The notes under the pieces: generated by a model
What the model was told of the DNA's origin: nothing
What the model saw: only the letters and a program-made list of their open reading frames with translations
The model's database searches: none
NCBI RefSeq assembly: GCF_014635685.1
Contig: NZ_BMDH01000001.1
Location: 558,001-622,000 of the forward strand
Source: Galliscardovia ingluviei
GTDB taxonomy: Bacteria > Actinomycetota > Actinomycetes > Actinomycetales > Bifidobacteriaceae
Length of the DNA stretch: 64,000 nucleotides
Direction: 5' to 3'
Position numbers and translations under genes: made by a program
In this document: positions 12,207 to 63,769 of the stretch, piece by piece
How positions within the stretch are numbered: position 1 is the stretch's first letter
Layout of the letters: every line of letters starts with the position of its first letter

Positions 12207-13406
12207 ATGAACTTTGAGATGCCAACATTATCAACGCTGCATACTTTGCTTGACCCCATAGATTGCAGACAAGAACAACAAAGGCATCTTTCTTCGGTTC
12301 TTCCAGCATTAAGTGCTGCCTTGGGCGTCCCTATTCCAACACCAGTGCATCCGCATCCTCAGCAACTGGCTCAGAGCCTACACATTCCTAGCTGTGAGCG
12401 AGCTGTAGTTGTGTTTATTGATGGTTTAGGTTTTTGGAATTTGGTGCTGCGTATAGGACATACACCAAATATGCGGGCTATGTTGCGTCAGCAATATAAC
12501 GACCAACCAATATGGACCACACAACCAAGTACCACAAGTGTAGCTATTCCAACGTTTGGAACAGGTACAGCACCTGGATTTACTGGCATGTTTGGGTATA
12601 CACAGCGTAATCCACGCACCGGCAACAAAGCACAAATGATCACCTTTACTGATGATATTGCACCGCGTGAAGTGCAGCATCAGCCGACAATATTTTCTCA
12701 AATTGATCAGCAGGGAATGCGGGTTACTTCCATAGGATTGCCTCGTTTTGAACACTCTGCGCTTACTGAGGCTGCTCTTAAGGGAGGAGCGTTTATTGGT
12801 AGTGAAAGCCCTCGTATGCGTCTCAAACATGCACTTGCTGCTAACGAAACCCCAGGGCTAACATACTTATATATTCGTGACCTTGATAAAACAGCCCATA
12901 AAAGTGGGTGGGATAACGATGCTTGGGTAGCACAGCTAGAAAAAATTGATACGATTATTGGTACATTACGTCGTATGCTTGCGCCTGGAACATTATTAGT
13001 AATTACTGCTGATCATGGCGTGGTCAATATGGTCGAGCAGGATCAAATTGATATAGCTGATAATCCGATGCTCCAAGAAGGAGTTGAACTTGTTGCGGGT
13101 GAGCCTCGTGCGCCAATGCTATATACTACTTTGGGTCAACAAGATGCTGTTGCGCAACGATGGCAAGAAGTATTAGCCGATAGGGCAGTAGTACTAACGC
13201 AAGAAGAGGCACTCAACCAAGGTATATTTGGTGCAGTACAACCCCATACATTGCCATGGCTTGCAGATGTATTCGTACTTACTCAAGGGCAACATACTAT
13301 TGTAGATTCACGTACACAGCGCGAGCAAGAGCGTACTCTTCCAGCAGTGCATGGATCGCGCACGCAGATGGAAATGGAGATTCCGCTATTGATGGAAGTG
13401 CTATAG
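12207..13406 (+). CDS. Alkaline-phosphatase-superfamily phosphodiesterase/pyrophosphatase
   Basis: A 399-residue protein of the nucleotide pyrophosphatase/type I phosphodiesterase group. It shows the metal-binding FIDGLGF near residue 72, the TTQPSTTSVAIPTF segment carrying the catalytic Thr/Ser, Asp-Leu-Asp-Lys-Thr-Ala-His in the middle, and the ITADHGVV metal motif near residue 270. There is no clear signal peptide, so it is probably cytoplasmic. The substrate is not known from sequence. The ATG at 12207 is weakly supported; one at 12222 is also possible. Convergent with the NADH dehydrogenase gene, and in my reading it marks the left border of the respiratory island. Confidence 0.8.
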   Translation: MNFEMPTLSTLHTLLDPIDCRQEQQRHLSSVLPALSAALGVPIPTPVHPHPQQLAQSLHIPSCERAVVVFIDGLGFWNLVLRIGHTPNMRAMLRQQYNDQPIWTTQPSTTSVAIPTFGTGTAPGFTGMFGYTQRNPRTGNKAQMITFTDDIAPREVQHQPTIFSQIDQQGMRVTSIGLPRFEHSALTEAALKGGAFIGSESPRMRLKHALAANETPGLTYLYIRDLDKTAHKSGWDNDAWVAQLEKIDTIIGTLRRMLAPGTLLVITADHGVVNMVEQDQIDIADNPMLQEGVELVAGEPRAPMLYTTLGQQDAVAQRWQEVLADRAVVLTQEEALNQGIFGAVQPHTLPWLADVFVLTQGQHTIVDSRTQREQERTLPAVHGSRTQMEMEIPLLMEVL

Positions 13407-13479
13407 CACCTCAAGAGATTGTATGTGAGTGGACTCAATACAACATACATACAAAATAGATTTAAGCTCAAAATACAAA

Positions 13480-13507
13480 GGCTCTACACCGCGAGGGATG
13501 TAGAGCC
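13480..13507. terminator. Hairpin between convergent genes
   Basis: GGCTCTACA (13480-13488) pairs with TGTAGAGCC (13499-13507) around a 10-nt loop, in the gap between the phosphodiesterase and the minus-strand NADH dehydrogenase. It could serve both directions; no strong T-run. Confidence 0.6.
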
Positions 13508-13535
13508 AATACTATAACTACCTATAATTTACGAT

Positions 13536-14738
13536 TTAGTGATACAGATCGAAGCACCCGAGTGAGAGTACTTCTTTCAAGCCGCCCAAATCATTGAGGG
13601 ACTTATTCCTAATCATCTTCTTGATAGCAGATGCAGGATAGCCCTTTACCTTAGTTTTACCTACAACACCAAAAGCATGAGTATTACCTACAGAAGCTAC
13701 CGTTCCTTGAGACACGAAGGAGAATGGCTCAGTGGCTTCACCACGCAACTGGTGGGCAAGATTCTTGGCTACGTGAGCGCCCATACGGGAAGCAATCTGT
13801 GCTGTAGTTGGATATGGACGGTTGGACTGCTTGTCCATGAATGCGGAAACATCACCGATAATATACACATTCTTGTGCTCTTGATCGGTAAGATCATCAT
13901 TGACAATAACGCGACCACGGCGCTGGCTAAATCCAGATTCACCCATTACTGGAGAACCACTTACACCAGTCGTCCAAATAATAGTACCAGCCTTAATTGT
14001 CTGAGGCTGCTCGTCATCACCAGCGGTGTAGAGCACTTCGCCAGGGTTGATACCCTTAATCTTGCAACCAGTCATCAGCTTAATACCAAGCTTTTCAATA
14101 AGTTGCAAACCATATTGTGCTAGTTCATCATCGAACATTGGCAAAATACGTGTTGCGGCTTCTACACAGACAATTTCAATCTGCTCAGGAGCAACCCCTG
14201 CAAGCTCAGCATACTTTTTGCGTTCATCGGTGAGAGCACCAGCCAATTCAATACCGGTGAAACCAGCGCCACAGACGAGCAAACGCAGATCGTTAGGATC
14301 ATGAGACTGACGATAATGCTTCATAGTCTCAACAATATGCTCATGGATACGTTCAGCAGTTGGAATAGTAACCATTTGCAAAGCATGCTCTGCAGCACCT
14401 GGAATGCCAAAGGTTTCAGAAACAAAGCCGAGGGCAATAACCAAATAGTCATAGTGTAATGCATCATGATTACGTAGTGTTACCTTCTGGGCATCCCTGT
14501 CAATAGTAACAACCTCGTCCTGAACAAACGTGGTTTTATCGTTTAATACTTCTTGGATTGGGAAGGTAATTTTGGTGCGTGGTTGAGAGCCTGCAGCTAC
14601 CTCATGAAGCTCCGCTGCTTCATAATGGAAGTCATTGCGATCAACCAATGTGATGTGGAAATCACCCTGTTGCTTTTGCAGATTACGAACAGTCTTCAAA
14701 CCTGCGTAGCCGGCCCCCAATACTAGTATTTCTTTCAT
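13536..14738 (-). CDS. ndh: Type II NADH dehydrogenase (NDH-2)
   Basis: A 400-residue FAD-dependent NADH:quinone oxidoreductase, a non-proton-pumping entry point for electrons into a quinone pool. The first Rossmann motif LGAGYAGLKT (FAD) is at the N terminus and the second, CGAGFTGIELAG (NADH), near residue 155; the VYIIGDVSAF FAD motif is near residue 300. The DFHYEAAELHEVAAGS segment resembles the quinone-reductase proteins of lactobacilli. There is no membrane span; the C-terminal region probably provides peripheral membrane attachment. It lies 31 nt after menA with aaaggag upstream, so the two are likely co-transcribed. Quinone reduction fits the adjacent menA and cyd genes. Confidence 0.88.
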   Translation of the reverse strand: MKEILVLGAGYAGLKTVRNLQKQQGDFHITLVDRNDFHYEAAELHEVAAGSQPRTKITFPIQEVLNDKTTFVQDEVVTIDRDAQKVTLRNHDALHYDYLVIALGFVSETFGIPGAAEHALQMVTIPTAERIHEHIVETMKHYRQSHDPNDLRLLVCGAGFTGIELAGALTDERKKYAELAGVAPEQIEIVCVEAATRILPMFDDELAQYGLQLIEKLGIKLMTGCKIKGINPGEVLYTAGDDEQPQTIKAGTIIWTTGVSGSPVMGESGFSQRRGRVIVNDDLTDQEHKNVYIIGDVSAFMDKQSNRPYPTTAQIASRMGAHVAKNLAHQLRGEATEPFSFVSQGTVASVGNTHAFGVVGKTKVKGYPASAIKKMIRNKSLNDLGGLKEVLSLGCFDLYH

Positions 14739-14769
14739 TTAAGGCTCCTTTACCCTAATGTTCCAAACC

Positions 14770-15684
14770 CTACTCTAACCAGTTATTTATAATAATTCCA
14801 GCACAGTACGTTGCTGCGTGTACAACTGAGCTAACAGCTAAAATTCGTACTGCACAAATAAAGGTTTCTCTTTTTACTTGTCGTTGCCATAGCAGGCGTG
14901 TCTGATGGTAGATAAACGGTATTAACAATAGAGTCAATAGCACACTATAAGGAGCAAGACCTAGCATTGCTTGACATACTACCGCTACTAAAGCAAGCAC
15001 ATTCGCACTTGCAAACGCATATAAACCACCTTTGATGCCGATATAATTGACGATGGTGTATCGATGATTACTCTCGTCTTCCTCCTTATCACACAGATTA
15101 TTAGCTAACATTAAATTTGAAATCCATAAGGTATTTGGTAAAGCAATAAGGAAAATTTTTGTTAGGGTTGCAATATCCCAAGTAAACATCTGGTAAGTGT
15201 TGAGATAAACGCAAATAAGCGTAATCATAAAACCCATAGTAAAACCAGAAAACAGCTCGCCCAAAGGCAAACTTGACAGTGGGCGAGGGCCTGCTGAATA
15301 TGCGAGCCCTACAGCAAAACAGAATACTCCCATTGCCAGCATTGGCCAACCTACAACCCATACCAATGCTAAACCAATAACCATGGCAACTATAAAAAAT
15401 ATAATAAGTAAACTGCGGATAGTACGTAGTGAAAGATGTTCACGCCCAATAATGTTGGTGTGTTGTTGATAGACATCATTGTCAGCATGTTGATAATCGT
15501 TGTAATTATCCCAAATATCGACAAACATATTGAACAGGAACATGGCAATAAAAAAGCCAATCGTGAGATACCAGTGTATGGAACCGTAATAATACCAGCT
15601 AAAACACACGCCAATAAGGCAGGGTAAGACGCTGGCTATTTTCGCCTTCATTTCTACCAACTCCATAAATACTGGAATGGTCAT
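14770..15684 (-). CDS. menA: UbiA-family prenyltransferase, probable MenA
   Basis: A 304-residue integral membrane protein with about eight to nine hydrophobic spans. The two Asp-rich motifs of the UbiA family are visible: DIWDNYNDYQH near residue 60 and NNLCDKEEDE near residue 195. MenA attaches a polyprenyl chain to 1,4-dihydroxy-2-naphthoate to give demethylmenaquinone. The start at 15684 is fixed by aaaggag 6 nt upstream. It shares a divergent promoter region with the polyprenyl diphosphate synthase gene, its presumed donor, and precedes ndh. Another UbiA substrate is possible, but the cyd and ndh context argues for a respiratory quinone. Confidence 0.8.
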   Translation of the reverse strand: MTIPVFMELVEMKAKIASVLPCLIGVCFSWYYYGSIHWYLTIGFFIAMFLFNMFVDIWDNYNDYQHADNDVYQQHTNIIGREHLSLRTIRSLLIIFFIVAMVIGLALVWVVGWPMLAMGVFCFAVGLAYSAGPRPLSSLPLGELFSGFTMGFMITLICVYLNTYQMFTWDIATLTKIFLIALPNTLWISNLMLANNLCDKEEDESNHRYTIVNYIGIKGGLYAFASANVLALVAVVCQAMLGLAPYSVLLTLLLIPFIYHQTRLLWQRQVKRETFICAVRILAVSSVVHAATYCAGIIINNWLE

Positions 15685-15779
15685 GAACGACTCCTTTACA
15701 CACCTGAATCTCCACAACCATACTATACTGGTACGCGCAATAATGTAAGGGGAATGTGATATTTCTCTCTATTCTTATG

Positions 15780-15809
15780 TTGTTATATGTAGGAACACTG
15801 GTGCATACT
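15780..15809 (+). promoter_or_regulatory. Probable promoter of the polyprenyl synthase gene
   Basis: TTGTTA (15780-15785) and CATACT (15804-15809) are 18 bp apart, 29 nt before the start codon. On the other strand TATAGT (complement of 15722-15727) is a candidate -10 for menA, so the 153-bp gap is a divergent promoter region. Confidence 0.5.
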
Positions 15810-15837
15810 TATGAAGTAAGCGTGATAGAGGAGTACC

Positions 15838-16818
15838 ATGGTATCGTATTGGCGACAATATCCGGATATTGAAGTGAAGCTGCAAGCAGTTCGTGAGTTT
15901 ATTAAACAACGCGTACAGATAAGCAATACCGATATTGAATCAGCTATTATTGCCATGAATGCAGCCGGTGGTAAATATCTGCGTCCGGCTTTTTTCTTCA
16001 TGTTTACAGGATTTACGGAGCATAAGCAATATAGCGATGACGAGCGTATAGCCGTTGCTGCCTCCCTAGAAATTCTCCATATGGCAACGCTTATCCATGA
16101 CGATATTATTGATGATTCGCCGTTACGTCGTGGGCAAGTGAGTATTCAATCACATTATGGCAAAGATGTAGCTGTATATACTGGTGATTTCCTGTTTACC
16201 GTGTTTTTTGAACTCGTCATCGAAACCATGCAGGGCTCTCCATATTTAGCAGTTAATGCGCAGGCAATGAAGAGAATTTTGCTTGGTGAATTAGATCAAA
16301 TGTATTTGCGGTTTAATCAAGAGCAGACAGTTGATAATTATTTGCAAAGCTGCACTGGCAAAACGGCTGAGCTATTCCGCTTGGCTTGTGAAGAAGGCGC
16401 ATACTTTGGTGGTGCAGATACAGCAACTGTTGAACGAGCGGGGCGCATCGGGATTAATATTGGATTGGCATTTCAAATTCTTGATGATATTTTGGATTAC
16501 ACTGCACAAGAAGGTGAAGTACAAAAGCCTGTGCTAGAAGATTTGGCAACAGGTGTTTACACATTGCCTTTACTAGCTGCGTATGAAGGTCATGCTCAGG
16601 ATTTTAAGCCGTATCTTGACAAAGGGCTCAATATTTCACATGAGGATATTCGCACTGTAGCGCGTATGGTTCGTGATTTTCATGGAGTAGACAAGGCTCG
16701 TGAATTAGCTCAATCATTTACTCAGCGTGCGCTTGATGATATTGAGCAATTACCTCATACTCCGGCACGTAAGAATCTCATGAAGCTCACACGCCAACTG
16801 TTGCATCGCACTCGCTAG
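15838..16818 (+). CDS. Long-chain polyprenyl diphosphate synthase (hepta/octaprenyl type)
   Basis: A 326-residue trans-isoprenyl diphosphate synthase. The first Asp-rich motif is HDDIIDDSPLRRG near residue 85 and the second is FQILDDILDYT near residue 210. The residues before the first motif are small (LIHDD preceded by Ala-Thr), which fits long-chain products rather than farnesyl or geranylgeranyl chains. The start has gaggag 5 nt upstream. Divergent transcription from menA and the neighbouring cyd operon indicate that it supplies the menaquinone side chain; a single-subunit enzyme would suffice. Chain length cannot be read from the sequence. Confidence 0.85.
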   Translation: MVSYWRQYPDIEVKLQAVREFIKQRVQISNTDIESAIIAMNAAGGKYLRPAFFFMFTGFTEHKQYSDDERIAVAASLEILHMATLIHDDIIDDSPLRRGQVSIQSHYGKDVAVYTGDFLFTVFFELVIETMQGSPYLAVNAQAMKRILLGELDQMYLRFNQEQTVDNYLQSCTGKTAELFRLACEEGAYFGGADTATVERAGRIGINIGLAFQILDDILDYTAQEGEVQKPVLEDLATGVYTLPLLAAYEGHAQDFKPYLDKGLNISHEDIRTVARMVRDFHGVDKARELAQSFTQRALDDIEQLPHTPARKNLMKLTRQLLHRTR

Positions 16819-16877
16819 TGTGGGCGTGAGAGTACTCATTTACAGAAAATAAGCATTTTTGCTGGGAATACGCGTTT

Positions 16878-16923
16878 ATATACGATATGCCGCACAGATC
16901 ACTCTATGCGGCATATCGTATAT
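16878..16923. terminator. 17-bp perfect stem between convergent respiratory genes
   Basis: The 17 bases at 16878-16894 are the exact reverse complement of 16907-16923, with a 12-nt loop. It lies between the ends of the polyprenyl synthase gene and cydC and probably acts as a bidirectional terminator, although no good T-run is seen on either side. Confidence 0.65.
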
Positions 16924-16959
16924 GGTTATCAGTATCGATACCTAGGCACTGATTCGCAA

Positions 16960-18699
16960 TCACTCACCATCATCGATAGCTTTGAGGCGTTGGTAGCGAG
17001 GATTAGTCGCTTGTAGATACTCAGGGGAACCTTGCATCTCAAGCTGACCATCCTCAATAAAGAGCACTCGGTCTACTGCCTCAATACCTTGCAAATGGTG
17101 TGTGATCCAGATAAGCGTTTTATCCTGCAACTCATGCATAAATGTGTGCAGCACAGCCTGTTCAGTAATAGGATCAAGACCTACCGTTGGCTCATCGAGA
17201 ATGATAATAGGCGTATTTTGCAAGAGAATACGGGCCAGAGCCAAGCGATGACGCTCACCACCGGAAAAACGTAATCCAGCTTCATCAACAATAGTTGCTA
17301 ACCCGTCAGGCAACTGTTCAACCATGGATTTAAGTCCTACACGTTGCAAAACATCCCAGACTTCTTCAACACTGGCTTGTTCATTGCCCAGCCGAATATT
17401 ATTCAAAATTGTGGTATTGAATAAATACGGCTCTTGCTGAATAACACCAATATATTGTGAAATTGTGGATTGCAGATGATGCACTGGTACGCCACCGAGC
17501 AAAACTGTTCCATCACTAGGTATAAGGTCTCCTCGTAGCAGACTTGCTAAAGTACTTTTACCTGAGCCGCTCCGCCCGAGAATTGCCACCTTTTCTCCAG
17601 CGTGAATAGTTACACTCAAATGATTAAGTACGTCCTTTGTCTCATACCTAAAGGTTAGATCTTGGATATCAAACTGCAAAGGTTGCGAAGGGGTCTCATG
17701 CCAAGTTTGCTCTTCAGTCTCTTCAGGAAGCGCATTCAATCGCTCAATAGAATCAGCATAGGTATTCGTTTCTTGACTTGCAGCAGATAACCCAGCAAAA
17801 GCATCAACTAGTGGGAAAATCGAAAGGACAAATGCTGCAATCCAATTGGCAGCCCCTCCATGATTGCCAATAAATTGAGTGCTGCACCATACCAACGTGA
17901 GTAGTGCTAAAAGTCCAAATGCATATTGGAATAGCAAATCACGTAAGTGGTTAAACTTACGCATGGATGATTGCACACGAGAGAGCTTATCTTGGGACTG
18001 TTCATGAAGTGCAACATACTCTTGACCACGCTGGCTGAAAATCCAATCAGCAATACCCAACACGTTATCAGTTAAATCAGTATACAGATCGTTCTTTAAC
18101 GTTTTCTCTTTACTTTGGCGTGCGCCATTAACAATAATAGACCACAATGGCATAGCCAAAAGAATTAATAGGAAATACAGTGCCACAAGCAGTGCATAAC
18201 CCAAAGAAAAACAGCCGAGACCAATCACAATAACAACATAAAGCAGCCAGGCAATCAGCGTGGGGAAGATGCTACGAAGATACAAGTTTTGAATATGGTT
18301 AATATCTTCTGACAACAGTCCCATCACATCACCAAGACGATACTTACGCTTGAAGAAAATAGCGTCTTGCTCAACCGCTTTATACAACTTAACGCGAAGA
18401 TGCGAGGTCATACGCAAAACCCAATTATGGCTTACCAATCGCTCTACATAGCGAAATACAGGGCGACCGATACCAAAAGCTCGCGTCAATACGATAGGCA
18501 CATACACTAACAAAATATTCTCTGGCAAAGACGCTGATTTACTAATCAAATAACCAGAATTAAACATCAAAGCACCAGCACAGAAGAATGTGCAAAAGCC
18601 CAAGAAGATAGCAAGTGCTAGTGTCCAACGATACTGCTTAAAGAACGGCTTTACCCAGCTATCATGTGCCAACTGTTGAAATAGAGGTATATTATTCAT
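16960..18699 (-). CDS. cydC: Thiol/heme-linked ABC exporter subunit CydC
   Basis: A 579-residue half-transporter: an N-terminal six-helix permease domain, then an ATPase domain with Walker A LGRSGSGKST, signature LRFSGGERHRLALAR and Walker B IIILDEPTVGLD. CydDC exports glutathione or cysteine and is required to assemble the heme-containing cytochrome bd oxidase. The ATG at 18699 overlaps the cydD stop codon by eight bases, giving translational coupling; an in-frame ATG at 18720 would overlap further and has no better ribosome binding site. Last gene of the cydABDC operon. CydC versus CydD naming follows similarity to the E. coli subunits and is reversed in some species. Confidence 0.88.
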   Translation of the reverse strand: MNNIPLFQQLAHDSWVKPFFKQYRWTLALAIFLGFCTFFCAGALMFNSGYLISKSASLPENILLVYVPIVLTRAFGIGRPVFRYVERLVSHNWVLRMTSHLRVKLYKAVEQDAIFFKRKYRLGDVMGLLSEDINHIQNLYLRSIFPTLIAWLLYVVIVIGLGCFSLGYALLVALYFLLILLAMPLWSIIVNGARQSKEKTLKNDLYTDLTDNVLGIADWIFSQRGQEYVALHEQSQDKLSRVQSSMRKFNHLRDLLFQYAFGLLALLTLVWCSTQFIGNHGGAANWIAAFVLSIFPLVDAFAGLSAASQETNTYADSIERLNALPEETEEQTWHETPSQPLQFDIQDLTFRYETKDVLNHLSVTIHAGEKVAILGRSGSGKSTLASLLRGDLIPSDGTVLLGGVPVHHLQSTISQYIGVIQQEPYLFNTTILNNIRLGNEQASVEEVWDVLQRVGLKSMVEQLPDGLATIVDEAGLRFSGGERHRLALARILLQNTPIIILDEPTVGLDPITEQAVLHTFMHELQDKTLIWITHHLQGIEAVDRVLFIEDGQLEMQGSPEYLQATNPRYQRLKAIDDGE

Positions 18700-20413
18700 G
18701 AATTGATGACCCCATTTCATGCTTCAAACGGTATAACGCTCCGTGGCGCGCCATAAGATCCTCATACGCACCAACTTCAACTACTTTGCCGTGCTCTAAC
18801 ACAACAATGGTGTCCATTTGGCGTAGCCAATGCAAACGATGCGTAGCAAATAACACCAAATGATGCTCCATAAGTGGCACCATACGCTGCTTGAGCTCAA
18901 GCTCAGTTTCAATATCGAGATGTGCTGTTGGCTCATCAAAAATGTAGACAGTGCGCTCTTGATCAAGATAGGCTCTTGCCAATGCGACACGCTGCGCCTG
19001 ACCGCCGCTTAGTGCTCGTGAGCCATTGCCAATACGCGTGTCTAGGCCTTGAGGAAGTTCTGCAATAACATCATCTAAACCAACAACATGTGCAGCTTGC
19101 ATGATTTGCTCATCAGTGGCATCTGGCGTATAGAAGGCGATGTTATCGCGTAGTGTTGCCTCAAAAATATAAGGTTGCTGAGGAATATACGCTAATTGCT
19201 TGCGCCACGCATCCTGATTAAGATTTGCCACAGGCTTACCATCGATGCGAATACTGCCTTGGGCAATAGGCAAAAAACCGCTGAGCACATTCATTAACGT
19301 TGATTTGCCAGACCCGCTCATACCGATAATACCAACTTTTTGCATACCTTTGAACTGCAAAGATGTCGGTTGTAAGAATTGCTTACCGTCATAGTCGACA
19401 GTGATATTATCGAGCTCGAGAGTGCTGTGCTCATTCCATGGAGCGATAGTAATTTGCTCGCCACGGATTGAAGGCTCATTGATAATACGATCAATAGCCT
19501 GCATCGCATTTTTACCATCAAGCGTTGCATGGTAGTCACTGGCAAAATTACGTACTGGCAGGAAATACTCCGGAGCAAGCACCAGAATGGATAATGCAGG
19601 GAACAGCAAAATATGTCCATTGAGCAAGCGTAAGCCGAGAAATACTGCAACAATAGCAATAGACAGAGTAGTAAAGAAATCAAGTGCAAACGTAGAAAGA
19701 ATACCAATACGAAGCGTGCTCATCGTAGTTTTACGGAATTGCTCACTCGTTTTGAAAATACTACTTGCATAGCGTTTCGATAAACCAAAGAAGCGCAAAG
19801 TATCAATACCACGCAGAGAATCTAAGAAGTGGTTAGATAACACTTGATAGGACTTATACTGGCGATCAGCTTTTGCTTGTGCAGCATATCCCAAAATAAT
19901 CATGAAGATAATAATAAGTGGGAAAACAAGGAGCAAAATAAGCCCTGAACGCCAATCGAACCAGAATACAACAACCAAGATAAGCCAAGGGGTTACAGAC
20001 ATATTAATCATCTTGCTTAAAATAAGATGAATATAGTTCTCCACTAATCCGATGCCATCCAAAGCCATGGTAATTACATTGCCAGAGCCTTGTTGCTGCA
20101 CAATATGAGGACCCGCATCAAAGAGCTTTTCAAGCAGTTTGCGTCGCAGAGTGTGTGATTGCTCCGATGCAAATGTATCTAGCTTTCTATCCTTGATATA
20201 TGTAATGAGATGGCGGCTTGCAAAGCATATCGCAAAAATTAAAATAGCAACTTTTTGATCGCCTAATGATTGCCCTTCCCACAAGCCTGTAATGGCACTA
20301 CTTAACATAGTCGCTTGTCCAATAATAAAGATTGCTTGTAGGACATCAAGCCCTGCAAGCAATCCCATTAATGATCTAATACCGGACAAGCGTAAAATCG
20401 CTTTATCGAGCAT
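18692..20413 (-). CDS. cydD: ABC exporter subunit CydD (cytochrome bd assembly)
   Basis: A 573-residue ABC half-exporter, the partner of CydC. The permease domain occupies roughly residues 1-310; the ATPase domain has Walker A IGMSGSGKST, signature LSGGQAQRVALARA and Walker B VYIFDEPTAHLD. It starts 11 nt after the cydB stop, with aaagga upstream, and overlaps cydC. Position immediately after cydAB is the layout seen in Firmicutes and actinobacteria. Confidence 0.88.
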   Translation of the reverse strand: MLDKAILRLSGIRSLMGLLAGLDVLQAIFIIGQATMLSSAITGLWEGQSLGDQKVAILIFAICFASRHLITYIKDRKLDTFASEQSHTLRRKLLEKLFDAGPHIVQQQGSGNVITMALDGIGLVENYIHLILSKMINMSVTPWLILVVVFWFDWRSGLILLLVFPLIIIFMIILGYAAQAKADRQYKSYQVLSNHFLDSLRGIDTLRFFGLSKRYASSIFKTSEQFRKTTMSTLRIGILSTFALDFFTTLSIAIVAVFLGLRLLNGHILLFPALSILVLAPEYFLPVRNFASDYHATLDGKNAMQAIDRIINEPSIRGEQITIAPWNEHSTLELDNITVDYDGKQFLQPTSLQFKGMQKVGIIGMSGSGKSTLMNVLSGFLPIAQGSIRIDGKPVANLNQDAWRKQLAYIPQQPYIFEATLRDNIAFYTPDATDEQIMQAAHVVGLDDVIAELPQGLDTRIGNGSRALSGGQAQRVALARAYLDQERTVYIFDEPTAHLDIETELELKQRMVPLMEHHLVLFATHRLHWLRQMDTIVVLEHGKVVEVGAYEDLMARHGALYRLKHEMGSSIHE

Positions 20414-20424
20414 TATGTGTTCCT

Positions 20425-21447
20425 TTAGTATCCTTCAGACGCTCCCACTGCAGGCAATGTAATGCGCTTCCTAAAGATATAGTATGACCAAGCCGTGTAG
20501 GCAAGGACAAACGGCACCAAAGTGATAGCCACAATTGACATTACCGTAAGAGTATATGGCGTGGATGAAGAGTTCTCAATGAGCAAATCGTATGCTGGAT
20601 CAATAGAGCTGATCATCACGCGTGGGAATAGACCTTGGAAGAGTAACACAACCACGGCCACAAGTGTCAAGCCACTTGCTAAGAATGCCGTAAGCTCAGC
20701 ACCCTTAAACGATGCCACATGAGCTAATACAGTCAGTGCCACAATAACAACCAAGAGTGCCAAAGTTCCTACAGGGTGGACTTGGATAAAGTCAGTCTGG
20801 AAGATCAGCAGAAGAGCAAATACCACCAAGCCTACATAGAGTACCCAGTAAGCAAGCTGTGCATAGTTACGAGCACGCTCACGGATAGCTCCAGAAGTCT
20901 TTAATGCGATAAAGTTCAATCCATGCAGATAGGTGAGCAATACCATAGCAATGCCACCAACAACGGAGAACACATTAATGTAATCCGTGAAGTGAGCAGT
21001 CATATTGCCATCCTTACCAATTGGCATACCTTGAATCATGCTGATGAACATCACACCAAGGAAGAATGGAACCATAAATGAACCAATAGTTAGAGTCCAA
21101 TTCCAGATATTCTTCTGATGTGCTGGCACGCGACTACGGAATTCGAAAGAAACACCGCGAATAATCAAGCCGACCAAAATGAAGAACAAAATCAAATAGT
21201 ATCCACTAAACAGTGTGGAGTACCAATATGGGAAAGATGCAAACATGGCGCCACCTGCAGTGAGCAACCAAACTTCATTACCATCCCAAACTGGCCCAAT
21301 AGTGTGGACGATTTGATCTTTTTCTCGCTCATTATGTGCCAGCGTCTGTACAGACATACCAACACCATAATCAAAGCCCTCTAGGAAGAAGAAGCCTGAA
21401 AACAGCAAACCAATAAGGAAGAACCAGAAGAACTGTAGTGCCGTCAT
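20425..21447 (-). CDS. cydB: Cytochrome bd quinol oxidase subunit II
   Basis: A 340-residue integral membrane protein with about eight to nine spans. The N-terminal FWFFLIGLLFSGFFFLEGFDYG and the following WDGNEVWLLTAGGAMFASFP are the CydB signature. CydB stabilises CydA and contributes to the oxygen and proton paths. Its ATG directly abuts the cydA stop codon (TAAATG) and a strong aggagg lies within the end of cydA, so the two subunits are tightly coupled. Confidence 0.95.
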   Translation of the reverse strand: MTALQFFWFFLIGLLFSGFFFLEGFDYGVGMSVQTLAHNEREKDQIVHTIGPVWDGNEVWLLTAGGAMFASFPYWYSTLFSGYYLILFFILVGLIIRGVSFEFRSRVPAHQKNIWNWTLTIGSFMVPFFLGVMFISMIQGMPIGKDGNMTAHFTDYINVFSVVGGIAMVLLTYLHGLNFIALKTSGAIRERARNYAQLAYWVLYVGLVVFALLLIFQTDFIQVHPVGTLALLVVIVALTVLAHVASFKGAELTAFLASGLTLVAVVVLLFQGLFPRVMISSIDPAYDLLIENSSSTPYTLTVMSIVAITLVPFVLAYTAWSYYIFRKRITLPAVGASEGY

Positions 21448-22887
21448 TTAGAACACCTCCTTGGCGAATGGGTCTACAGCAGTCGCATTAGCTGCCTTGA
21501 CTTGCTGCGCTTCGAAGCTTGGACCCTTCTTCAATTCTCGAATAACCAATCCAACCATAGTTACTGCAAGTCCAGTAAACAGCAAGAAGTATACGGTGTT
21601 GGAGAACAGGAGTGAAGCTACAGAAACGTTTGGAGACACACTCTGCTCAATGGTAAAGAGACCATATACTGTCCAAGGATAACGTCCAAGCTCAGTCACG
21701 AGCCAACCACAAGTATTTGCCAAGAATGGGGCAAAAGTGCACAGGCCAAGCACCCATAGCATCCACTTCTTGGTATAGAGTATTTGTTTCTTTTTGCGGG
21801 TAAAGAAGAGCCCAAACGCGGCAACAAGGAACATCAATACACCAAAGCCTGCCATAATTCTGAAGCTGTAGAAGAGTGTATTGACCATTGGGTAGTAGTT
21901 TTGCTCACCAAACTTATCCTTGAACTGCTCGTTCAGTTCTTTATTAGCCGTATCCATACCTTTTACAGCACCTGATGGCTTGTTGTAGGAAAGAATACTC
22001 AGCATATATGGAATTTCAATGCCGAAGACCTGCTCATGCTTTGCTTCATCTGCCCAAGCAATGAGTGCCCAAGCTGCAGGATCGCCAGAATCCTTGTAAT
22101 CGCCTTCCATCGCAGCAAATTTCATAGGCTGATCTTCGATCAAAGACTTCATCTGCAAGTCACCAACGCCCATAAGAGCAATAGAACTAATGAGCGTTAC
22201 TACCAAGCCAAGGCGAATAGACTTCTTGAATACTGCAGTATCAGATTCGGTAAGCTTTTGTGGTTTAAGCAGCTTAAATGCAGACATTCCAGCAATGAGA
22301 ATGCCACCCATAGTGAATGCGCCCGTAATAACGTGTCCATACTCGTAGAAGAACTGAGTATTGGTAATGAGTGCAAAGAAGTCAGTCATTTCAGCGCGAC
22401 CATTGCGCACTTCATAACCAACTGGGTGCTGCATAAAGCTGTTTGCGATCAAAATCCATGCAGCAGACATCAATGAGCCGATGGAGACCAGCCAGATGAA
22501 TGTCAAGTGCAGTTTTGGACCGATCTTCTTATTCTCCCAAGTGAACATCCACAAACCGAGGAATGTGGATTCCATGAAGAAGGCAAGCAGTGCCTCTACT
22601 GCCAGAGGTGCACCGAAGATATCGCCTACGAAGCGTGAGTAATCAGACCAGTTCATACCAAACTGGAATTCCTGAATAATACCGGTTACCACACCAACGG
22701 CGAAGCTTAAGAGCATAATTCGACCCCAAAAGCGGGTCATTTTCTTGTAGACATCTTTTTTCGTCGCTACATAGAGCGATTCCATAATTGCTACGATAAA
22801 GCAGGTTCCAATAGTAAATGGTACGAAGAAGAAATGGAACACAGTAGTCATAGCAAATTGGAAGCGCGCTAACGCTGTTATAGTCAT
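21448..22887 (-). CDS. cydA: Cytochrome bd quinol oxidase subunit I
   Basis: A 479-residue oxidase subunit that oxidises quinol and reduces oxygen to water. His18 (in TTVFHFFFVP) and His185 (in YEYGHVITG) match the heme ligands His19 and His186 of E. coli; Glu98 and Glu106 in the AVEALLAFFMES segment match the conserved acidic pair. The quinol-binding Q loop (GDLQMKSLIEDQPMKFAAME) is present, but the protein lacks the long Q-loop insert of the E. coli form, as in Gram-positive bacteria. ELGRYPWTVYG is the usual C-terminal block, with Tyr in place of Gln in GRQPW. First gene of cydABDC; ggaggg lies before the start. Heme is required, and no heme genes are in the window. Confidence 0.95.
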   Translation of the reverse strand: MTITALARFQFAMTTVFHFFFVPFTIGTCFIVAIMESLYVATKKDVYKKMTRFWGRIMLLSFAVGVVTGIIQEFQFGMNWSDYSRFVGDIFGAPLAVEALLAFFMESTFLGLWMFTWENKKIGPKLHLTFIWLVSIGSLMSAAWILIANSFMQHPVGYEVRNGRAEMTDFFALITNTQFFYEYGHVITGAFTMGGILIAGMSAFKLLKPQKLTESDTAVFKKSIRLGLVVTLISSIALMGVGDLQMKSLIEDQPMKFAAMEGDYKDSGDPAAWALIAWADEAKHEQVFGIEIPYMLSILSYNKPSGAVKGMDTANKELNEQFKDKFGEQNYYPMVNTLFYSFRIMAGFGVLMFLVAAFGLFFTRKKKQILYTKKWMLWVLGLCTFAPFLANTCGWLVTELGRYPWTVYGLFTIEQSVSPNVSVASLLFSNTVYFLLFTGLAVTMVGLVIRELKKGPSFEAQQVKAANATAVDPFAKEVF

Positions 22888-23002
22888 GAGATCCCCTCCA
22901 ATATGTCCATGACAGTCACGTTCGTTGAATAACTATTGGTGTTATCACTCAACATGAACACATGCATAGTCATTCCTCACTTGATAGACTGCTGTTGAAC
23001 GG

Positions 23003-23032
23003 TGTATACAAGAGCAATGTTCACTTTTTCAA
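23003..23032 (-). promoter_or_regulatory. Probable cydABDC promoter
   Basis: On the minus strand TTGAAA (23027-23032) and TATACA (23003-23008) are 18 bp apart, about 115 nt upstream of cydA. The resulting leader of roughly 105 nt is long and could hold regulation; I see no named riboswitch in it. TGTGA and GTGA half-sites lie around the promoter, but no full CRP/FNR palindrome. Confidence 0.5.
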
Positions 23033-23122
23033 GAAAACTTCACAATTGTAAGTTGGTGCTAAATATACTCCTGTCACTTACAAATTTCAAAGAACAACGC
23101 TAGTAAAAATGAAAAAAGAGAG

Positions 23123-23163
23123 AGAAAAATGAGATTCGGAGGTACAATATGCACCCCCGAATC
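23123..23163 (-). terminator. Terminator of sepH
   Basis: GATTCGG (23133-23139) pairs with CCGAATC (23157-23163), with three more inner pairs after one mismatch. On the minus strand the stem is followed by a T-rich run (complement of the A-rich 23111-23129). Confidence 0.7.
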
Positions 23164-23193
23164 AATAGCAAAAGGATATTTTGGAAAGAAATT

Positions 23194-24483
23194 TCACTCT
23201 CCGAATAAAATTTCATCCCAACTTGGCACAGCACTTCTTCTCGGTTTGCGCGACTTCGATTCTGAATTATGAGTAGAAGATGATGCATCTGAGTTTGAAG
23301 AACTCTGCTCAGTTATGTTACTCATACCACTTGTTTGCTTAGAAGGAGCAGTATGCTCCTGTGAATTAGAGCGCTCACCGGCTGCTGCTGTGCTGTTTTG
23401 TGCTTGTGTTGCAGTAGCAGATGAGATATTCGTAATACTAGGCTGATGATGAGCTTCATCACTTTGTTCAGGCTGCTCAGTAGAAGCATCTTGAGACTGT
23501 GCAACATTGCTTCGTAATTGGAATGGATTCACATACTCAGTCGTTGGTGTTGAGACAGAAGTTGATAGCTGTTGTTCGTCAGCAGATGACTGAGTAGTGT
23601 GTTGTGCGGCGATGTTTGTTGTACCTGTCCCGTAAACCCATGAATCTGCACTACGAGAGGAAACTGGTTGCACACTGTTTTTGTTGCTCTCATGGTCGGC
23701 AGGAACTCCTAATGGTGCATCCGCTACCGGTGTGTTCAATTGCTGAGAATCGAATGCTGACTGCGAAGTTTGAGCGTATGAAGATGATTGCGCCGTAGTC
23801 GACAATGATGTCTGTTGCTGCGTTTGCTGACTAGTAGTATTTTCAAATAAATCAGTCATCTGAGCAGTCTCAAGCTCAAAATGGTCTAAATCAGCGCGAG
23901 CGATGCGCAATAATCTGCCACCTGTCGTATTCAGCGGTGTCACTGTGTTGTCGTGCAGATTCCATGACCACTGTGCACGAATTGTCTGCCCGGATAGGGT
24001 AAAGCTGCCCTCAATCTGCCATGGATTATGTCCTTGGCGTGTTGTTTTCCATTGCACGGCACTCATAGGAATATTAACTGTGTCTAGAGAAGCAGCAAGC
24101 ACATCACGCACAGTACGGTGACGAAGCGATCCAGGAGCAGGTGCTACGAGGAACTGATCAAGAGCATATTTCTTTTCAGTCTCTACTGGTTTGGCAAAGC
24201 GACGCACCAATGCCTCGCTAATAGCAAAATGTTGAGCAATATTTGCAATATCATCACCTGCACGCACCATTGCTTGAATAGTAGAGATAGGAATAGAAGA
24301 TCGCGTGACACCACGTGTTGGCTCATTGTTTTCTTCACGAATTTGTTTACTCGCTAAAATGCCTTGTTCGAGCCTGTCATCAATAATAACTCGGAAGTTT
24401 TGACCATGAGCTTCAAAGATTAAATCGCCGTGTTCATCTACGCGTTCAAAGCGTGCAAGAGTAGCTGACTGTGATGTTGTCAT
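23194..24483 (-). CDS. sepH: Septation protein SepH (DUF3071)
   Basis: A 429-residue protein whose N-terminal 200 residues match the actinobacterial SepH domain, including a helix-turn-helix-like segment (IQAMVRAGDDIANIAQHFAI) and a following KYALDQFLVAPAPGS block. The rest, roughly residues 210-415, is low-complexity Ser/Thr/Gln/Ala, ending in a short conserved basic and aromatic motif (RKPRRSAVPSWDEILFG). In Streptomyces SepH binds FtsZ and promotes ring assembly. The ATG at 24483 is chosen because ggagga lies 9 nt upstream and it gives the usual start. Divergent from the DUF4193 gene. Confidence 0.88.
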   Translation of the reverse strand: MTTSQSATLARFERVDEHGDLIFEAHGQNFRVIIDDRLEQGILASKQIREENNEPTRGVTRSSIPISTIQAMVRAGDDIANIAQHFAISEALVRRFAKPVETEKKYALDQFLVAPAPGSLRHRTVRDVLAASLDTVNIPMSAVQWKTTRQGHNPWQIEGSFTLSGQTIRAQWSWNLHDNTVTPLNTTGGRLLRIARADLDHFELETAQMTDLFENTTSQQTQQQTSLSTTAQSSSYAQTSQSAFDSQQLNTPVADAPLGVPADHESNKNSVQPVSSRSADSWVYGTGTTNIAAQHTTQSSADEQQLSTSVSTPTTEYVNPFQLRSNVAQSQDASTEQPEQSDEAHHQPSITNISSATATQAQNSTAAAGERSNSQEHTAPSKQTSGMSNITEQSSSNSDASSSTHNSESKSRKPRRSAVPSWDEILFGE

Positions 24484-24537
24484 GGTGTTTTCCTCCATAA
24501 AAAGTATTTTAGCGCCACCCTGTCCCACGTGTCGTAC

Positions 24538-36537: not shown

Positions 36538-37326
36538 ATGCGACGAGTACATGAGCAAGCTGAACAAGGTGAACAATATCAGCAATTGCATCATGTACGT
36601 AATCGTACCGCTGGCGCTATGGAATCGTTATTCTCCGCTATTGCTAAGCATTATGATGCCATCAATACGCTGGCAAGCTTTGGGTTCGATAGACTATGGC
36701 GTAAACGAGCAATAGATAAACTATCACATGCATTAGCTGCTACTGGCGCTCCAATAGATCGTGCTTATATTGCTGATATTGCTTGTGGTACTGGAACATC
36801 GAGTATCGTGTTAGCACGTAGGGGAGCAGAGGTTTTTGCTGGGGATGTGTCTTATGGCATGCTACGTATTGGAGAGCAGCGTAAGAGTGCATTACCAATG
36901 CAGGTGAGTCAACGTATCTGTTTTACGCATTGTGACGCGCACCATCTTCCTTTACATGATACAAGTGTAGATGCGGTAACAATATGTTTCGGCTTGCGTA
37001 ATATGGATTCGCGCGAGCAAGTATTTGCTGAATGTGCTCGTGTTGTCAAACCGGGTGGTGTGTTCATGTGTTTGGAATTTGATAATCCACATCATCGACT
37101 TTGGCGCGCGATAGTGCATCAAGTGAGTTCGTGCATGGTACTATGTGTGGCTGCAATATTTCGTCAAAATAGTAAACCATACCAATATTTATTGCAGTCA
37201 ATTAAGGATTGGCCGGGGGCAGCGTATATTACTGAGCAGCTGCTTACTCATGGCTTTGAAGATGTTCGCGTATATCGTTTGGGTTTTGGTATTGCGAGTA
37301 TTTGTATTGCATACCGGACGGCATAA
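36538..37326 (+). CDS. menG: Demethylmenaquinone methyltransferase (MenG/UbiE family)
   Basis: A 262-residue class I SAM-dependent methyltransferase. The SAM-binding motif is ADIACGTGTSS near residue 80; then CFGLRNMDSREQVFAECARVVKPGG, closely matching the UbiE/MenG signature, and FMCLEFDNP. The N terminus has the family's YDAINTLASFGFDRLWR segment. It would methylate demethylmenaquinone to menaquinone, the last step of the pathway. The ATG at 36538 has ggag 5 nt upstream. It stands alone, about 14 kb from the rest of the respiratory genes, just after a terminator. Ubiquinone synthesis is unlikely in this group. Confidence 0.83.
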   Translation: MRRVHEQAEQGEQYQQLHHVRNRTAGAMESLFSAIAKHYDAINTLASFGFDRLWRKRAIDKLSHALAATGAPIDRAYIADIACGTGTSSIVLARRGAEVFAGDVSYGMLRIGEQRKSALPMQVSQRICFTHCDAHHLPLHDTSVDAVTICFGLRNMDSREQVFAECARVVKPGGVFMCLEFDNPHHRLWRAIVHQVSSCMVLCVAAIFRQNSKPYQYLLQSIKDWPGAAYITEQLLTHGFEDVRVYRLGFGIASICIAYRTA

Positions 37327-61263: not shown

Positions 61264-61284
61264 TTTGTTAGGAAATCTAACAAA
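61264..61284. repeat. Inverted repeat in the pflB upstream region
   Basis: TTTGTTAG (61264-61271) and CTAACAAA (61277-61284) around 5 nt. It resembles a redox-sensor Rex site (TTGTTA-N6-TAACAA) but has one extra central base. It could also be the end of the transcript of the small upstream gene. Confidence 0.5.
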
Positions 61285-61300
61285 TGTGAGCAAGCTCACG
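61285..61300. promoter_or_regulatory. CRP/FNR-type palindrome upstream of pflB
   Basis: GTGAGCAAGCTCAC (61286-61299) has GTGA-N6-TCAC spacing; with the flanking T it matches nine of ten defined bases of TGTGA-N6-TCACA. It lies 95-108 nt before the pflB start. Confidence 0.6.
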
Positions 61301-61393
61301 TGCAAAATGCGTGTATCACTCATTAGGGGCTCTACAATAGTAAGTAACGGTTGGGCGAAGACGCTCACCGTAGTCCTCAAAAGGAGTGAACAC

Positions 61394-63769
61394 ATGACAG
61401 CAGTAGATGCCACTAAGGTCACCGCCGAGGATCCTACAGCTCAAGCTTGGGATGGCTTCGTTGCAGGAGATTGGCAGAACGGAGTCGACGTACGCGACTT
61501 CATCCAGAAGAACTACACCCCATACGAGGGAGATGAGTCCTTCCTTGCTAATGCTACCGAAAAGACAAAGCACTTGTGGAAGTACCTCGACGACAACTAT
61601 TTGGCAGTCGAGCGTAAGCAGCGTGTGTATGATGTTGACACTCATACCCCTGCTGATATTGATGCATTCCCAGCAGGATACATCGATAACGCTGATGTAG
61701 ATAACGTAATCGTTGGTCTTCAGACCGATGTTCCTTGCAAGCGCGCTATGATGCCAAACGGTGGTTGGCGTATGGTCGAGCAGGCAATTATTGAGGCCGG
61801 CAAGGAGCCAGATCCAGAAGTCAAGAAGATCTTCACCAAGTATCGTAAGACCCACAATGATGGCGTATTCGGCGTATACACCAAGCGCATTAAGGTAGCT
61901 CGCCACAACAAGATTCTTACCGGTCTTCCAGATGCTTATGGTCGTGGTCGTATTATCGGTGATTACCGTCGTGTTGCTCTCTATGGTGTAAACACGTTGA
62001 TTGCTTTCAAGCAGCGCGATAAGGATTCCATTCCATACCGCAACGATTTCACCGAGACTGAAATCGAGCATTGGATTCGTTTCCGCGAAGAGCATGATGA
62101 GCAGATCAAGGCTTTGAAGAAGCTCATTACTTTGGGTAAGGAATATGGTCTTGATTTGACTCGCCCAGCTCGTAATGCAAAGGAAGCTGTACAGTGGACT
62201 TACATGGGCTATTTGGCATCTGTAAAGAGCCAGGATGGCGCTGCAATGTCCATCGGTCGTCTTTCTGCATTCTTCGATTGCTACTTCGAGCGTGATTTGA
62301 AGGCTGGTCTTATCACTGAGACTGATGCTCAGGAGATTATCGATAACATTGTTATGAAGTTGCGTATTGTGCGCTTCCTTCGTACCAAGGATTATGACAA
62401 CATCTTCTCCGGCGATCCATACTGGGCAACTTGGTCAGACGCAGGCTTCGGCGATGATGGTCGTACTTTGGTAACCAAGACCTCATTCCGTTTGCTCAAC
62501 ACGCTAACTCTTGAGCACCTCGGACCTGGTCCTGAACCAAACATCACCATTTTCTGGGATCCAAAGCTTCCAGAAGGCTACAAGCGCTTCTGCGCAAAGA
62601 TTTCCATCGATACCTCTGCTATTCAGTACGAGTCCGATAAGGAAATCCGCGGTCACTGGGGCGATGATGCTGCAATCGCATGCTGCGTTTCCCCAATGCG
62701 CGTCGGCAAGCAGATGCAGTTCTTCGCAGCTCGCGTGAACTCCGCAAAGGCATTGCTCTACGCAATCAACGGTGGTCGCGATGAAATGACCGGTATGCAG
62801 GTTATTGACAAGGGTGTTATCGATCCAATTACCCCAGAAGCAGATGGTACTTTGGACTACACCAAGGTCAAGGACAACTACGAGAAGGCTCTCGAGTGGT
62901 TGTCAGAAACCTACGTACAGGCTCTGAACATCATTCACTACATGCACGATAAGTATGCATACGAATCCATCGAGATGGCTTTGCATGACAAGGAAGTATA
63001 CCGTACCCTCGGTTGCGGTATGTCTGGTTTGTCTATTGCTGCTGATTCCTTGGCTGCAATTAAGTATGCAAAGGTATATCCAATTACCAATGCAGAGGCA
63101 AAGAACCTCGAAGGTCATGAGTATGAGTATGTTGAAGGCGCTGACGATGATCTGGTAGTCGGCTACCGTACTGAGGGTGAATTCCCAATCTACGGTAACG
63201 ATGATGATCGTGCTGATGACATTGCAAAGTGGGTAGTATCCACTGTAATGGGTCAGGTTCGTCGTCTTCCTGTATACCGCGGTGCAGTTCCAACCCAGTC
63301 CATTCTGACCATTACCTCCAATGTTGAGTATGGTAAGAACACTGGTTCCTTCCCTTCAGGTCACAAGAAGGGCACTCCATATGCTCCAGGTGCAAACCCA
63401 GAGAATGGTATGGATTCCCACGGTATGCTCCCATCCATGTTCTCAGTCGGCAAGATTGATTACAACGATGCACTCGACGGCATTTCCTTGACCAACACCA
63501 TTACTCCTGATGGTCTTGGTCGTGATGAACAAGAGCGTATCGGCAACTTGGTTGGTATTTTGGATGCTGGTAACGGTCATGGCTTGTACCACGCAAACAT
63601 TAATGTGTTGCGCAAGGAACAGCTTGAAGATGCTGTAGAGCACCCAGAAAAGTACCCACACTTGACCGTACGTGTTTCTGGCTATGCTGTAAACTTCGTG
63701 AAGCTTACCAAGGAGCAGCAGCTCGATGTAATTTCACGTACATTCCACCAGGGTTCTGTCACTGATTAA
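61394..63769 (+). CDS. pflB: Pyruvate formate-lyase
   Basis: A 791-residue glycyl-radical enzyme that splits pyruvate plus CoA into acetyl-CoA and formate under anaerobic conditions. The two active-site cysteines are in IACCVSPM, and the radical Gly is Gly763 in RVSGYAV. The start at 61394 has aaggag 7 nt upstream and gives [13 protein letters not shown]. Its codon choice looks strongly biased (many GGT, AAG, CGT), fitting a highly expressed gene. Followed by a terminator and pflA. The enzyme is destroyed by oxygen, which contrasts with the oxidase genes elsewhere in the window. Confidence 0.96.

What the first reader, a model, noticed from the sequence alone, without database searches (positions are those of the whole stretch)
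13536..22887. A full NADH-to-oxygen respiratory island in a Bifidobacteriaceae-like genome
NDH-2, a MenA-like prenyltransferase, a long-chain polyprenyl diphosphate synthase and cydABDC sit together in 9.4 kb. Typical bifidobacteria are regarded as strictly fermentative and lack a bd oxidase chain. Family assignments are clear from motifs: heme ligands in CydA, both Asp-rich motifs in MenA and the synthase, both Rossmann motifs in NDH-2. This would allow oxygen to be consumed and NADH reoxidised without lactate or ethanol production.
Basis: partly seen in the sequence, partly recalled or inferred. Interest (0 to 1): 0.85.

Follow-up and report, generated by a model that had tools for sequence, protein, structure and literature searches.

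The report
Borrowed respiratory chain in a bifidobacterium
A bacterium of the normally fermenting bifidobacterium family carries a set of seven genes for breathing oxygen, apparently acquired from a streptococcus-like bacterium, but no sign was found of key genes for making the haem and quinone that the machinery needs, so it probably has to scavenge them.

Summary
In detail: seven intact genes (ndh-2, menA, a polyprenyl diphosphate synthase, cydC, cydD, cydB, cydA) fill 13536-22887. The interpretation needs correction.

(1) A bd oxidase in Bifidobacteriaceae is not new: 36 of 151 family genomes have CydA, and it is in print (PMC3447821, PMC5540593).

(2) This one has a separate origin. Its CydA groups with Streptococcus/Eremococcus; 40 bifidobacterial rows form another clade (joint clade rejected, p-AU 0.0007). 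The 9.8 kb lies between two convergent genes that are adjacent in 8 of 8 congeners, none with CydA. The island-type MenA occurs in 1 of 189 family genomes.

(3) No ferrochelatase and no MenB were found, so haem and DHNA (or quinone) should come from outside, as in Streptococcus agalactiae.

(4) The family's own MenA, beside a gpmA-like gene in 17 relatives examined, is missing from that place; the island copy is the only UbiA-family gene found. A MenG-like gene in this window is shared by 9 of 9 genus members. Imported oxidase, dehydrogenase and MenA thus seem joined to an older quinone-tail pathway.

Activity is untested, and four relatives reported to carry cyd genes showed no oxygen uptake.

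The parts
21448..22887 (-). cydA, cytochrome bd oxidase subunit I (479 aa)
   Evidence: PF01654; aligns with solved bd oxidases; trees
20425..21447 (-). cydB, cytochrome bd oxidase subunit II (340 aa)
   Evidence: TIGR00203, PF02322
18692..20413 (-). cydD, ABC transporter needed for bd assembly
   Evidence: TIGR02857 above cut-off
16960..18720 (-). cydC, ABC transporter needed for bd assembly; overlaps cydD by 29 bases
   Evidence: TIGR02868 above cut-off
15838..16818 (+). polyprenyl diphosphate synthase, likely makes the quinone tail; chain length not determined
   Evidence: PF00348; DDIID and DDILD; solved relatives
14770..15684 (-). menA, DHNA polyprenyltransferase of Lactobacillales type; the only UbiA-family gene found in the genome
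   Evidence: NF004752 above cut-off
13536..14738 (-). ndh, type 2 NADH:quinone oxidoreductase
   Evidence: PF07992; nearly full-length alignment with solved NDH-2
13407..23193 (.). inserted segment, 9,787 bases between two native convergent genes that are adjacent in relatives
12207..13406 (+). native left neighbour, type I phosphodiesterase (PF01663)
   Evidence: match in 145 of 151 family genomes
23194..24528 (-). native right neighbour, SepH (longest ORF; the true start may lie further in)
   Evidence: NF040712; match in 9 of 9 genus genomes
36538..37326 (+). menG/ubiE-type methyltransferase, candidate for the last menaquinone step; native to the genus
   Evidence: TIGR01934 194.6 bits, cut-off 158.35; over cut-off in 9 of 9 genus genomes; start inferred
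22888..23132 (-). probable promoter/leader region of cydABDC; best promoter-like match 23090-23062
   Evidence: consensus scan only; 28 such matches in the region against 23.0 (sd 5.9) in shuffles
15685..15837 (.). divergent intergenic region between menA-ndh and the synthase
13480..13507 (.). terminator-like hairpin between the convergent ndh and phosphodiesterase genes
   Evidence: 10 such matches in the region against 8.2 in shuffles
23133..23163 (-). terminator-like hairpin after SepH

Best explanation
The island is a Lactobacillales-type minimal aerobic respiratory chain, acquired, most simply as one block, by a Bifidobacteriaceae lineage from a donor near the streptococcal branch, and inserted between two convergent housekeeping genes. 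Proposed working: the synthase makes a prenyl diphosphate; MenA attaches it to imported DHNA, giving demethylmenaquinone; a native MenG may methylate it to menaquinone; NDH-2 passes electrons from NADH to the quinone; CydAB, assembled with the help of CydDC and filled with imported haem, passes them to oxygen. The cell would regain NAD+, remove oxygen and, through bd, build some proton motive force, but only where neighbours or the host supply haem and DHNA or quinone. Shown here: gene identities, intactness, insertion site, tree position of five of the seven genes, no ferrochelatase or MenB found, no MenA at the native place, MenG-like gene in the genus. Inferred: activity, cofactor uptake, order of steps, benefit.
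For: Gene families and motifs. CydA tree of 42 rows: window sister to 7 Streptococcus/Eremococcus rows, 100/99. Quick tree of 71 rows: 40 bifidobacterial rows one clade (100), window with 8 streptococcal-type rows (99), window plus bifidobacteria rejected, p-AU 0.0007. MenA (97), CydC (99) and CydB (94, without Eremococcus) group likewise; NDH-2 within a 7-row set (100). Gene order equals that of Enterococcus and Ligilactobacillus loci that hold all seven genes. Phosphodiesterase-SepH adjacency: 8 of 8 congeners, aligned ends 18-83 bases apart; 27 of 29 fetched relatives, stop-to-stop 14-430 bases (three of the 29 are congeners). CydA in 1 of 9 genus genomes. Island-type MenA in 1 of 189 family genomes; the next, five genomes, 29-32% over nearly full length. 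Ferrochelatase and MenB: no match in this genome. One UbiA-family gene only; no native MenA beside the gpmA-like gene and phoU. MenG over cut-off in 9 of 9. Precedent: S. agalactiae has ndh, menA and cyd, lacks the other men genes and respires only with outside haem and quinone (PMC6030563, passages).
Against: No activity, expression or cofactor data. Genes do not guarantee respiration: B. coryneforme, B. indicum, B. actinocoloniiforme and B. bohemicum showed no oxygen uptake (PMC3447821) although the 2017 paper lists cydABCD in all four (PMC5540593). The genome is 95.6% complete, so missing genes may lie in gaps. MenB was the only DHNA-pathway gene and ferrochelatase the only haem gene tested; MenD, MenE and the futalosine route were not. 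The synthase shows no clear streptococcal affinity (best 59%, several lineages near-equal) and was not put in a tree; nor was CydD. NDH-2's tie to Streptococcus proper is weak (31). Gene order is that of Enterococcus although the sequences are nearest to Streptococcus, so the donor is unsampled or the order changed. Named and unnamed bifidobacterial rows in the 71-row tree partly repeat the same genomes. No Rex-type box above chance.
Confidence: 0.75

Rival explanations
1. The chain is an oxygen and NADH sink (detoxification, protection of oxygen-sensitive enzymes) rather than an energy-conserving respiration; the genes are the same, the benefit differs.
For: In other Bifidobacteriaceae the trait looks weak: B. 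asteroides took up 6.2 nmol O2 per min per mg dry cells, much less than other respiring bacteria, and none was detected in the other bifidobacteria tested (PMC3447821, passages).
Against: The S. agalactiae chain with the same parts raises growth yield when haem and quinone are given (PMC6030563, passages).
Confidence: 0.3
2. It is the ancestral Bifidobacteriaceae respiratory cluster, kept here and lost in congeners.
For: 36 of 151 family genomes have CydA; B. asteroides-type loci also have ndh and a synthase near cyd.
Against: CydA joint clade rejected, p-AU 0.0007; CydA 53-58% identical to the 35 other family copies against up to 75% to Streptococcus; native MenA 18-39% in partial or longer local alignments against up to 68% in Lactobacillales; closed site in relatives.
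Confidence: 0.03
3. Assembly artefact or contamination by Lactobacillales DNA.
For: Only one genome of 189 has the island-type MenA; reads could not be examined.
Against: It lies inside a contig of 1,025,962 bases between genes with the family's own synteny; no donor sequence above 78% protein identity was found for any of the seven genes; it would also have to coincide with the missing native MenA.
Confidence: 0.03
4. A non-functional remnant: without haem and DHNA supply the genes are useless and decaying.
For: Ferrochelatase and MenB not found; four relatives reported to carry cyd genes showed no oxygen uptake.
Against: All seven frames are open at full length with catalytic motifs in those checked, at 22-41% protein divergence from the nearest matches, and ribosome-binding sites precede the five genes looked at; streptococci keep the same state.
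Confidence: 0.08

Closest known systems
menA-ndh-cydABDC cluster of Streptococcus (S. agalactiae studied; S. acidominimus, S. cuniculi, S. gallinaceus, S. saliviloxodontae near in sequence)
   Same: Same functions, nearest sequences (best CydA 75%, MenA 68%, NDH-2 72%); same dependence on outside haem and quinone expected
   Different: In S. gallinaceus and S. saliviloxodontae the order is menA-ndh-cydABDC-synthase; here cydABDC-synthase-menA-ndh; the host is an actinobacterium with a native MenG-like gene
cydABDC-synthase-menA-ndh cluster of Enterococcus, Ligilactobacillus, Bavariicoccus
   Same: Same gene order and orientations in the loci that hold all seven genes
   Different: Lower identity (CydA 64-73%); the tree places the window beside Streptococcus
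Bifidobacterium asteroides / B. subtile / Bombiscardovia bd oxidase (PMC3447821, PMC5540593)
   Same: bd oxidase with CydCD, and in the B. asteroides and B. subtile loci NDH-2 and a synthase nearby, in the same family
   Different: A separate CydA clade (100); B. asteroides-type order ndh-cydB-D-C-A; no island-type menA hit in those loci; the one cyd-bearing relative tested has a ferrochelatase (G015), none was found here

Membership tests
cytochrome bd quinol oxidase | CydA and CydB families, haem-ligand and quinol-site residues in place | tested here: met
   PF01654, PF02322; H18, H185, M345, E98, E106, R343, K256, E261 located, aligned with 7d5i and 7nkz; the roles of these residues are recalled from E. 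coli CydA
cytochrome bd quinol oxidase | haem b558, b595, d spectrum and quinol oxidase activity | not testable with these tools
   needs membranes
Lactobacillales minimal respiratory chain (NDH-2 + MenA + bd, haem and quinone scavenging) | ndh, menA, cydABDC and a prenyl synthase in one cluster | tested here: met
Lactobacillales minimal respiratory chain | sequences fall within the Lactobacillales radiation | tested here: met
   CydA, CydB, CydC, MenA, NDH-2 trees; CydD and the synthase by identity only
Lactobacillales minimal respiratory chain | no own haem synthesis, no own DHNA synthesis (the scavenging forms) | tested here: inconclusive
   PF00762 and TIGR01929 not found, as expected; but the genome is 95.6% complete and only one gene of each pathway was tested
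Bifidobacteriaceae-type cyd locus | CydA in the bifidobacterial clade | tested here: not met
   p-AU 0.0007
type 2 NADH dehydrogenase | Pyr_redox_2 fold family and nearly full-length similarity to solved NDH-2 | tested here: met
   no NCBIfam model passed its cut-off
MenA | UbiA family with both Asp-rich motifs, above the curated MenA cut-off | tested here: met
   NF004752 441 bits, cut-off 289; motifs
MenG | above TIGR01934 cut-off | tested here: met
   194.6 against 158.35 bits; below the equivalog cut-offs listed there, so its substrate is not settled

The most novel reading that the evidence does not exclude
The recipient lineage already carried the tail end of menaquinone synthesis (its own MenA and MenG) without a bd oxidase and without DHNA synthesis, living on scavenged DHNA. 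One transfer from a streptococcus-like donor supplied an oxidase, a dehydrogenase and a second MenA; the imported MenA then displaced the native one. This would be a one-step conversion of a fermenter into a conditional respirer, and it would imply that the widespread orphan MenA of Bifidobacteriaceae is a working DHNA prenyltransferase.
Probability: 0.45. Interest if true: 0.62.

Novelty: new member of a known kind. Interest (0 to 1): 0.45.

Why it matters
It is a clean case, with closed site and donor clade, of a whole respiratory chain moving from Bacillota into an actinobacterial family usually described as fermentative, and it shows that the bd oxidases of Bifidobacteriaceae have at least two separate origins. 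It also draws attention to a UbiA-family gene found in 148 of 151 family genomes, MenA-like in the six scanned, whose use is open and testable, and which may bear on why DHNA stimulates bifidobacteria (that effect is recalled; I saw it only as a term in a paper listing).

Tried and rejected
Vertical inheritance within the family: rejected by the tree and AU test. Assembly mix-up: judged unlikely; reads were not available. Mobile-element carriage: no tRNA in the window; no shared direct repeat of 9 or more bases between the stretches 13381-13560 and 22881-23260; no integrase among the 23 neighbouring frames scanned between 75 and 37326, one of which had no Pfam match; the frames from 37602 to 64000 were not scanned. 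Mechanism of entry unknown. Rex-type repressor box: 4 matches with up to 3 mismatches against 5.6 expected, none upstream of cydA (pattern recalled). Rfam: no match in the window at gathering score. Composition: island GC 43.0% against 44.6% for the window; GC3 of island genes 0.34-0.49 against 0.27-0.36 for 12 of 13 other frames measured, the 13th 0.51; weak support.

Changed on re-reading: confidence lowered from 0.80 to 0.75 and the remnant rival raised from 0.06 to 0.08, because four relatives reported to carry cyd genes showed no oxygen uptake, which I had left out.
Full report
OBSERVATION. Seven complete reading frames fill 13536-22887. Pfam and NCBIfam identify them as an NDH-2-like oxidoreductase, MenA, a polyprenyl diphosphate synthase, CydC, CydD, CydB and CydA. 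CydC, CydD, CydB and MenA pass curated NCBIfam cut-offs; NDH-2, CydA and the synthase do not, and rest on Pfam and on solved relatives. The best solved relatives of the synthase are deposited as geranylgeranyl diphosphate synthases, so 'long-chain' is an inference from context. Catalytic motifs are present in those checked (the roles of the CydA residues are recalled). The layout is cydA-B-D-C on the minus strand, the synthase on the plus strand, then menA-ndh on the minus strand. Ribosome-binding sites precede cydA, cydB, menA, ndh and the synthase.

WHERE IT SITS. The window is part of a 2.09 Mb genome in 12 contigs, 95.6% complete, in a contig of 1,025,962 bases. Left of the island is a type I phosphodiesterase, right of it SepH, convergent. 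In the same genus the two are neighbours in 8 of 8 other genomes, their aligned ends 18 to 83 bases apart (coordinates). One search matched 144 other family genomes, of which 29 were fetched as loci (three of them congeners): 27 gave a stop-to-stop distance of 14 to 430 bases; two (L072, L095) gave no SepH hit in that script, though one search shows a short SepH hit beside the phosphodiesterase in L072. In the window the distance is 9,787 bases. None of the 8 congeners has CydA. So the segment is an insertion at an otherwise closed, conserved site.

WHERE IT CAME FROM. The named-genome scan gave 36 loci; the best CydA are Streptococcus at 75%, then Eremococcus and Enterococcus (68-73%), Ligilactobacillus (64-65%), and known Bifidobacterium (54-56%). 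That scan used peptide patterns from the window protein, so it favours near relatives. In the family, 36 of 151 genomes have CydA, the other 35 at 53-58% identity. A careful tree of 42 rows puts the window beside seven Streptococcus/Eremococcus rows with 100/99 support. A quick tree of 71 rows includes 40 bifidobacterial rows (29 of the 35 other family matches, plus 11 named loci, some of them the same genomes); these 40 form one clade (100), the window stands with eight streptococcal-type rows (99), and forcing window and bifidobacteria together is rejected, p-AU 0.0007. Quick trees of MenA (97), CydC (99) and CydB (94) agree; NDH-2 falls in a 7-row set that also holds two other Lactobacillales (100), its closer position being unresolved. 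CydD is nearest to Streptococcus by identity only, and the synthase has no clear nearest lineage. Of 395 Lactobacillales genomes 284 have a match to the MenA query, the highest identity 68%, in the genome of S. acidominimus. The island-type MenA is found in 1 of all 189 family genomes held; 91 match at E up to 0.001, but apart from the window only five do so over nearly full length, at 29-32%. The gene order is that of Enterococcus and Ligilactobacillus loci that hold all seven genes, while S. gallinaceus, S. saliviloxodontae and Eremococcus have menA-ndh in front of cydA; the two orders are circular permutations of each other. The simplest reading is a donor branching just outside the sampled streptococci that kept the older order. 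Large plasmids of Enterococcus raffinosus and E. gilvus carry cydA at 69-71% identity, so such genes can ride on plasmids; these are less like the window than Streptococcus is.

WHAT IT LACKS. Ferrochelatase (PF00762) is missing from 24 of the 25 family genomes in that search, this one included; it was found in all 14 genomes of other families and in 8 of 14 control genomes. MenB (TIGR01929) is missing from all 25 family genomes and over cut-off in all 14 others, and in 7 of 14 controls. A closely parallel system is S. agalactiae: ndh, menA and cyd in one operon, no other men genes, respiration only with outside haem and quinone (PMC6030563, passages read). Lactic acid bacteria needing both haem and menaquinone are described in PMC2696406 (passages). 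I infer the same dependence here; one gene of each pathway was tested.

WHAT THE HOST BRINGS. PF01040 is found in 148 of 151 family genomes and in all 130 good ones. Six of these native proteins were scanned; their best hits are DHNA polyprenyltransferase models, and all six pass the TIGR00751 MenA cut-off. In 17 of the 18 loci fetched the native gene lies at a histidine-phosphatase gene, probably gpmA (in L180 with a second UbiA-family gene between); the 18th, L181, holds a different UbiA protein. In this genome PF01040 finds one gene only, the island MenA. The gpmA-like gene (92% identical) and phoU are present on contig C2, but none of 18 UbiA queries hits the 18 kb around them. Native and island MenA are only distantly alike. 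So the native copy is gone from its usual place and was not found elsewhere: an apparent displacement, within the 95.6% completeness. Separately, a methyltransferase at 36538-37326 passes the MenG/UbiE subfamily cut-off. All 9 genus genomes have one over cut-off, against 15 of 151 in the family; in eight of eight congeners it is on the same contig as the phosphodiesterase, and it is 35-42% identical to the seven congener copies fetched. It is therefore native. It fails the equivalog cut-offs, so its substrate is not settled.

MECHANISM. Proposed: imported DHNA plus prenyl diphosphate (synthase) gives demethylmenaquinone (MenA), perhaps menaquinone (MenG); NADH reduces it (NDH-2); CydAB with imported haem oxidises it with oxygen, CydDC being needed for assembly. 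The protein parts are shown by sequence; every step in the cell is inferred.

COMPARISON WITH WHAT IS KNOWN. Respiration in B. asteroides PRL2011 was reported in 2012 with weak oxygen uptake, and none in the other bifidobacteria tested, among them B. coryneforme, B. indicum, B. actinocoloniiforme and B. bohemicum (PMC3447821, passages). In 2017 cydABCD was reported in Bombiscardovia coagulans and in 11 family genomes, among them those same four species (PMC5540593, passages). So cyd genes alone do not prove respiration, at least without the right supplements. A 2025 paper still gives absence of respiratory metabolism as a mark of the family (PMC11707648, passages). I saw no report of a Lactobacillales-type cyd/menA/ndh block in Bifidobacteriaceae in the listings; that is a limited search of open papers. 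The system is a new member of a known kind, in a new host lineage and with an unusual gene-displacement story.

VERDICT. Real, intact, and best explained as a horizontally acquired conditional respiratory chain. Interest 0.45, for the clean transfer, the loss of the native MenA and the MenG link.

Noticed in passing
L169-L180, L182-L186 (loci): A MenA-like prenyltransferase lies at a gpmA-like gene in the 17 Bifidobacteriaceae loci examined (UbiA family in 148 of 151 genomes), although MenB is missing from the 25 family genomes tested; its function is open.
   Followed up: partly
window 36538-37326; L192-L199: A MenG/UbiE-type methyltransferase over the family cut-off in only 15 of 151 family genomes, including 9 of 9 of this genus; the other six lie in genera g4, g7 and g11.
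   Followed up: partly
L190, L191, L169-L176: This genome has about 45-47% G+C in the stretches seen, its eight congeners 60-65% in the loci fetched; an unusually wide spread for one genus.
   Followed up: no
L003, L006, L019 against L007, L011, L015, L161: The Lactobacillales respiratory cluster exists in two gene orders that are circular permutations of each other.
   Followed up: partly
plasmid records H1-H6: Large plasmids of Enterococcus raffinosus and E. gilvus carry a cydA 69-71% identical to the window's.
   Followed up: no
G101, G103, G091, G071, G563: Five family genomes have a UbiA-family protein 29-32% identical to the island MenA over nearly full length, more than the usual native copy shows; the first four are in genus g15 and have CydA.
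   Followed up: no
window 61265-63769: Reading frame with GC3 0.51, above the other non-island frames measured (0.27-0.36); identity not examined.
   Followed up: no
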